This document shows positions 20,935-53,372 of a DNA stretch of 64,000 bases, piece by piece; positions within the stretch are counted from its first letter, which is position 1; each line of letters opens with the position of its first letter. The translations under genes were made by a program, and so were the position numbers. This DNA comes from Dromiciops gliroides. Lineage: Eukaryota; Chordata; Mammalia; Microbiotheria; Microbiotheriidae. Under the pieces are notes generated by a model. That model was not told the DNA's origin. It did not search any database and worked only from the letters and a program-made list of their open reading frames with translations. The DNA lies in NCBI RefSeq assembly GCF_019393635.1, contig NC_057862.1, positions 242,964,941-243,028,940 of the forward strand, given 5' to 3'.

Positions 20935-21006
20935 CTTAGGCCTTCACTGCATCATAACGAATTTGAGAAAACTCCCGGAGACCAAAAGAACCTCCAACAT
21001 GAGTAC
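20935..21006 (-). CDS. COX16: COX16 exon 2, two offsetting indels
   Basis: On the minus strand an acceptor ATATTTTAG (ending at 21007) precedes 72 nt, followed by a donor GTAGGAG (20934 downward). The middle reads VGGSFGLREFSQIRYDAVK, which matches the human COX16 segment from memory. The exon finishes the membrane helix and starts the intermembrane-space part. Human exon 2 encodes about 24 codons (72 nt), the same length as here. Taken literally, however, the conserved frame is off: aligned to human, one base (T) is missing after the first eight bases, and one base (C) is extra near the end, giving GCCTAAG where GCTAAG would keep Lys-Ala-Lys. Read strictly from exon 1, the frame shifts and hits TGA about 20 codons in. 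Both changes are single-base homopolymer differences, so assembly error is more likely than a dead gene. Pseudogenisation is the alternative. Confidence 0.88.
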
Positions 21007-52940: not shown

Positions 52941-53009
52941 TATCATGGGCACACCGTAGCGCAGCGTCTTGCTCTTCTTCAGAGCGCGCCTCACTGCAGG
53001 CGCGAACAT
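52941..53009 (-). CDS. COX16: COX16 exon 1, coding part
   Basis: COX16 is a single-pass mitochondrial inner-membrane protein that helps assemble complex IV, acting with SCO1 in copper delivery to COX2. Reading the minus strand, an ATG at 53009 opens 23 codons beginning MFAPAV and ending YGVPMI. They are followed directly by a consensus donor GTGAGT (52940-52935). From memory of human COX16 (106 residues), 17 of the first 22 residues agree, including the MFAPAV start, the KTL and the YGVPM that leads into the membrane segment. The start has A at -3. The exon sits in a CpG island with ETS motifs, as expected for a constitutive mitochondrial gene. The junction falls inside the predicted membrane helix. 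Exon 2 is at 20935-21006; later exons were not found. Identity is near certain; the transcription start is not determined. Confidence 0.93.
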
Positions 53010-53022
53010 GATTTCTTTTCCT

Positions 53023-53029
53023 CTTCCGG
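53023..53029 (-). promoter_or_regulatory. ETS-like motif in COX16 leader
   Basis: CTTCCGG on the plus strand (CCGGAAG on the gene strand), 14-20 bases upstream of the COX16 ATG, so probably inside or at the edge of the 5' UTR. A further ACTTCCGG occurs at about 53110. Confidence 0.45.
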
Positions 53030-53372
53030 CAAGCGGCTCCCCGCCCGATCAAGCCGTTCAAATTCTGGACATAAAACAAAGGAGTCCTTGCACGCTCGCA
53101 TTACCTCGGAACTTCCGGGTGGGGGACTAGATACTCCCGAAAGCCTTTCCGACCGGAAAAGTCGGCGAGCAACTTTTACGTTCCGAGGGACCTCTATAGT
53201 CTGGTTACTGTGACCCCGGGGAGGGGCTGCGTCTGTCCGAAATCAGCGTCCGAAGAAGCACTGAGGCTCAGTACTTTGGTTCCTACCTAACTTTGTATAA
53301 AGGCTGCGTAGTGTCACGGGGAATAGGGGCTGAACCTAGGATTTACTTTTAAATTATTGATCCTATTTCTTC

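What the first reader, a model, noticed from the sequence alone, without database searches (positions are those of the whole stretch)
20935..21006. COX16 exon 2 carries two offsetting 1-bp indels
Seen: a 72-nt exon with good splice sites encodes VGGSFGLREFSQIRYDAVK, but that frame is one base off from exon 1, and a stop (TAA) closes it at the 3' end unless one extra C is dropped. Known: human exon 2 gives about 24 codons, also 72 nt. Inference: one T lost near the 5' edge and one C gained near the 3' edge cancel in length. Both are homopolymer changes, so consensus error is likely. If real, the membrane helix and the rest of the protein are lost and the locus is dead.
Basis: partly seen in the sequence, partly recalled or inferred. 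Interest (0 to 1): 0.75.

Follow-up and report, generated by a model that had tools for sequence, protein, structure and literature searches.

The report
Likely sequencing errors in COX16 exon

Summary
Window 20935-21006 (minus strand) is exon 2 of COX16: 72 nt, good splice sites, one -1 and one +1 indel. Read from exon 1 it reaches TGA at 20946-20944; the conserved VGGSFGLREFSQIRYDAVKA frame ends in TAA. The yardstick is the only other COX16 copy found, an intronless retrocopy 60 Mb away whose exon 2 part is 72 nt without the indels. Best explanation: consensus indel errors in the assembly. The genome matches Dromiciops gliroides (17 scaffolds; one of 670,775,900 bp, the published N50), assembly mDroGli1. 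Three of 63 protocadherin exons in it carry six 1-nt run-length indels, four of them in one exon that otherwise evolves like its intact paralogue. The rest of COX16 is intact: at the 9 residues where parent and retrocopy differ, the parent has the human residue at 6, the retrocopy at 0. In a dead gene, two coding indels before any amino-acid change has a probability of about 0.03. The retrocopy holds the only intact COX16 frame found, but its changes look neutral (8 replacements, 9.7 expected). A real recent loss covered by this retrocopy is not excluded (about 4%). Existing short reads would settle it. Low interest.

The parts
20935..21006 (-). COX16 exon 2, 72 nt, with two 1-nt indels as printed
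20998..21000 (-). site of the -1 indel (one base fewer than the retrocopy)
   Evidence: alignment parent/retrocopy
20938..20940 (-). site of the +1 indel (one base more than the retrocopy)
   Evidence: alignment parent/retrocopy
20944..20946 (-). TGA reached in the frame coming from exon 1
   Evidence: translation; position counted by hand
20936..20938 (-). TAA that closes the conserved VGGSFGLREF frame
   Evidence: position counted by hand
52941..53009 (-). COX16 exon 1 coding part, intact, donor GTGAGT
53010..53150 (-). COX16 5' UTR region, matched by the retrocopy (match reaches 53150)

Best explanation
Exon 2 of an ordinary, functional four-exon COX16 gene is misprinted: two 1-nt indel errors remain in the consensus of the assembly mDroGli1 of Dromiciops gliroides. 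Shown: the two indels, the intact remainder, and the same class of indel in other constrained exons of this assembly. Inferred: that these two are errors, since no reads could be seen.
For: (1) Assembly control: one search scored 107 of 107 candidates and listed 78 Cadherin_2 matches; I kept the 63 of at least 85 bits (cut chosen after seeing the table) and dropped 15 weaker rows (7 with long, 8 with short frames). Of the 63, 56 have open frames of 772-935 aa and 7 are short. All 7 were fetched. Three of them (L057, L058, L059) carry 4+1+1 single-base indels against an intact paralogue, all six changing the length of a base run. L057 has four, two of them offsetting and about 190 columns apart, yet its own branch has codon-position changes 11/7/24 against 12/7/22 for its intact paralogue (outgroup L070), or 7/5/22 against 20/12/30 (outgroup L067): a constrained gene with printed frameshifts. 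(2) COX16 shows no decay outside the two indels: exons 1, 3 and 4 open with good splice sites; at the 9 residues where parent and retrocopy differ the parent has the human residue at 6, the retrocopy at 0 (human sequence recalled); Pfam PF14138 parent (X at one residue) 82.8, human 81.5, retrocopy 78.8 bits. (3) If the gene were dead, two coding indels before any amino-acid change has P of about 0.034 with the UTR indel rate (0.009-0.023 with other assumed rates), and 0.002-0.008 with both in exon 2. (4) COX16 loss is severe: knockout cells had cytochrome c oxidase cut to about 50% (PMC5809144 section 6), and a homozygous nonsense variant was found in two patients with fatal lactic acidosis (PMC7898715 passages). 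[quoted passage not shown]
Against: No reads were seen. Two errors in one 72-nt exon is rare at random (2.6e-5 per exon at Q40, 3.9e-6 at the protocadherin rate; roughly 1-5 exons genome-wide if 200,000 exons are assumed). The protocadherin cluster is rich in paralogues and so harder to polish than COX16, and its three exons could themselves be recent real pseudogenes. Neighbouring SLC8A3 (open frame 598 aa) and three SYNJ2BP exons, read by eye, show no such error, nor do the high-scoring forkhead rows, judged from the table only. The 3' indel is not clearly a homopolymer change. That mDroGli1 was built from CLR reads is recalled and inferred from its citation of Rhie 2021, not shown.
Confidence: 0.87

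Rival explanations
1. Real, very recent loss of the parental COX16, with the intronless retrocopy at C2:303584721-303585471 supplying the protein.
For: The retrocopy holds the only intact COX16 frame found in the genome and matches the whole Pfam model at 78.8 bits. It carries at least 120 nt of 5' UTR with a CCGGAAGT element (its likely role as an ETS site is recalled). Neutral survival of its frame is only about 0.05-0.16 likely.
Against: Its substitutions look neutral: 14 CDS changes give 8 replacements against 9.7 expected, P of 8 or fewer 0.24, plus a ninth residue difference at the codon with the parent's missing base. CDS divergence (4.4%) is about half that of the UTRs (10.6% and 7.7%), as expected if the parent is constrained and the copy is not. 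dN/dS of 0.37 over both branches is not significantly below 1 (P 0.095). The parent shows no sign of relaxed selection.
Confidence: 0.04
2. Real null allele on the assembled haplotype of one animal, the other allele intact.
For: The primary assembly shows one haplotype only; the locus is otherwise pristine.
Against: It needs two independent indels in 72 nt on one haplotype with no other change.
Confidence: 0.06
3. Unusual splicing makes a working protein from the printed sequence.
For: Among the joins tried around exons 1 and 2, 70 give an open frame to the end of exon 4 and 18 of these keep VGGSFGLREF; the closest uses a donor +4 in exon 1 and GCA|GTGAAG in exon 2.
Against: The alternative donors look weak by eye (TGA|GTGCAA, GCA|GTGAAG) beside the normal ones, residues VKAK would be lost, and both changes would be needed at once.
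Confidence: 0.02

Closest known systems
Consensus indel errors causing false frameshifts in long-read assemblies (Rhie 2021, PMC8081667, passages)
   Same: 1-nt indels in an otherwise constrained exon; same class seen in protocadherin exons of this assembly
   Different: two in one short exon; one not clearly in a homopolymer
COX16 (Pfam PF14138), cytochrome c oxidase assembly factor
   Same: four exons in order, conserved residues, SYNJ2BP upstream on the same strand
   Different: printed exon 2 is frameshifted
Processed retrocopy
   Same: the second copy lacks introns, spans 5' UTR to 3' UTR, has a short A tract and a flanking repeat AAAAATCAATT
   Different: reading frame still open

Membership tests
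COX16 gene | full-length protein matches PF14138 | tested here: met
   82.8 bits with X at the missing residue; the printed 43-aa product matches no family there
COX16 gene | exons in order with canonical splice sites | tested here: met
COX16 gene | uninterrupted frame | tested here: not met
   as printed, TGA in exon 2
Pseudogene by real mutation | relaxed selection outside the lesion | tested here: not met
   of 9 residues differing from the retrocopy the parent has the human one at 6, 2 are undecided and 1 is at the missing base (human sequence recalled)
Pseudogene by real mutation | lesion present in independent reads | not testable with these tools
   no reads available
Assembly consensus error | same error class elsewhere in the assembly in constrained exons | tested here: met
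   3 of 63 protocadherin exons
Assembly consensus error | reads contradict the consensus | not testable with these tools
   no reads available
Functional retrogene | purifying selection on the copy | tested here: inconclusive
   replacements as expected under neutrality, but the frame survives (P 0.05-0.16)

The most novel reading that the evidence does not exclude
The monito del monte has truly and recently lost its intron-bearing COX16 gene, and an intronless retrocopy on the same chromosome now makes this complex IV assembly factor: a gene replaced by its own retrogene.
Probability: 0.04. Interest if true: 0.65.

Novelty: not a real feature. Interest (0 to 1): 0.14.

Why it matters
Mostly as a warning: automatic gene-loss screens on this assembly could call COX16 lost, and could count its retrocopy as the functional gene. 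If the indels were real, it would be a case of retrogene replacement in an essential respiratory gene, in a species studied for hibernation.

Tried and rejected
Alternative exon 2 in the introns: none found (searches give one exon 2 locus plus the retrocopy). Splice rescue: see the rival. GPCR control: only 147 of 2234 candidates were scored, so broken genes could be missed; not used. Forkhead control (86 of 86 candidates scored, 66 matches): judged from the table only, no clean frameshift in the high-scoring rows; one broken pair at C5:135714213-135714424 with stops looks like a pseudogene and was not examined. COX1 search for an mtDNA contig (32 of 32 candidates scored, 21 matches): all matches are partial and lie on large scaffolds C1-C3, so they look like nuclear insertions. 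SLC8A2 as a further control: its match is in three pieces with non-matching stretches between, read as introns, and it was dropped. Protocadherin rows L060, L062 and L063 show several frames or stops in tblastn and were taken as pseudogene-like without base-level study; L061 has one 2-nt frameshift in a divergent alignment and was not counted. The 15 Cadherin_2 rows under 85 bits were dropped. Solved-structure search with COX16: no relative (best E 0.26). Literature: COX16+retrocopy 0 papers; COX16+marsupial 1, on a protist (listing only); COX16+pseudogene+gene loss 0; the Dromiciops paper PMC13429303 has no occurrence of COX16 in its main text.

Full report
What is there. The finding lies in exon 2 of COX16 on the minus strand. 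The gene spans about 106 kb of scaffold C2: exon 1 at window 52941-53009 (coding part), exon 2 at 20935-21006, exons 3 and 4 outside the window within C2:242946463-242946527 and C2:242911745-242912112. SYNJ2BP exons lie upstream on the same strand, and a Calx-beta exon that I take as SLC8A3 lies downstream (that name and the human gene order are recalled).

The two indels. A DNA search of the whole genome found one other copy, an intronless retrocopy at C2:303584721-303585471 (5 of 5 candidates scored); in the Pfam COX16 search it was the only match above the cut-off (9 of 9 candidates scored). Aligned with it, printed exon 2 lacks one base near its 5' edge and has one more near its 3' edge; both are 72 nt. 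Read from exon 1, the frame ends at TGA after 43 codons. The +1 lies after that stop, so exons 3 and 4 come back into the original frame but would not be reached. The gained base could be T or C; a single relative does not decide.

Whose genome. G000 has 17 sequences, and C3 is 670,775,900 bases long. A survey of marsupial genomes gives 17 scaffolds and an N50 of 670.776 Mb for Dromiciops gliroides (PMC11305139, passages). The assembly is then mDroGli1.pri, GCF_019393635.1 (PMC13429303, passages), credited there to Rhie 2021. [quoted passage not shown] That this assembly is of the CLR kind is recalled and inferred.

Does this assembly carry such errors? I used protocadherin exons, single exons of about 2.4 kb. 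One search (107 of 107 candidates scored) listed 78 matches; I kept the 63 with at least 85 bits. Of these, 56 had open frames of 772-935 aa and 7 were short. All 7 were fetched with 7 of the 56 intact ones. Three of the 7 (L057, L058, L059) carry in all six 1-nt indels, each a change in the length of a base run. L057 has four, and its branch has codon-position changes 11/7/24 against 12/7/22 in its intact paralogue (7/5/22 against 20/12/30 with another outgroup), so it evolves like a working gene although the print breaks it. L058 gives 10/5/33 against 10/10/18 (15/11/35 against 5/5/14 with another outgroup) and L059, on a long branch, 81/53/142 against 16/16/40. Of the other four, L061 has one 2-nt break in a divergent alignment, and L060, L062 and L063 look like pseudogenes. 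Recent real pseudogenes among the three cannot be excluded.

Is COX16 decaying? I see no sign of it. Between parent and retrocopy, the 5' UTR differs at 13 of 123 sites, the CDS at 14 of 320 and the 3' UTR at 19 of 247. There are 9 residue differences, one of them at the missing base. At 6 of the 9 the parent has the human residue and the retrocopy does not, at 2 neither has, and at 1 the parent's base is missing (human sequence recalled). So the replacements that can be placed fell on the retrocopy. With UTR rates, two coding indels before any replacement in a dead gene has a probability of about 0.03.

The retrocopy. The 14 CDS changes outside the missing base give 8 replacements where neutrality predicts 9.7, with P of 8 or fewer 0.24, so nothing shows selection on the protein. 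Still, its frame is intact with homology to the whole PF14138 model, which neutrality allows with a probability of about 0.05-0.16. Whether it is expressed cannot be told here. It is what keeps the replacement reading alive.

Function at stake. SCO1 recruitment to the COX2 module depends on COX16 (PMC5809144, abstract). Its knockout in HEK-293T cells cut cytochrome c oxidase to about half (section 6). A homozygous nonsense variant was found in two unrelated patients with fatal lactic acidosis (PMC7898715, passages). A real loss without a substitute would be surprising.

Conclusion. It is ordinary. Worth keeping are the open-framed retrocopy and the existing reads that can settle the question.

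Noticed in passing
G000:C2:303584721-303585471 (L003, L008), outside the window: Intronless COX16 retrocopy with an open 106-aa frame, lying beside a SINE; the string AAAAATCAATT occurs on both sides of the SINE and after the retrocopy, suggesting repeated insertion at one target.
   Followed up: partly
G000:C2:242920695-242920916 (L039), COX16 intron 3, outside the window: Forkhead-domain sequence inside the COX16 intron (102 bits); by eye the frame ends in TAG where a conserved W would be expected (recalled), so probably a pseudogene.
   Followed up: no
L057, L058, L059 (protocadherin cluster, C2:310.00-310.03 Mb): 1-nt run-length indels in otherwise constrained protocadherin exons: probable consensus errors in this public assembly.
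   Followed up: partly
whole genome G000: A COX1 family search gave only partial matches on large scaffolds (21 matches), so no mitochondrial contig seems to be in this file.
   Followed up: no
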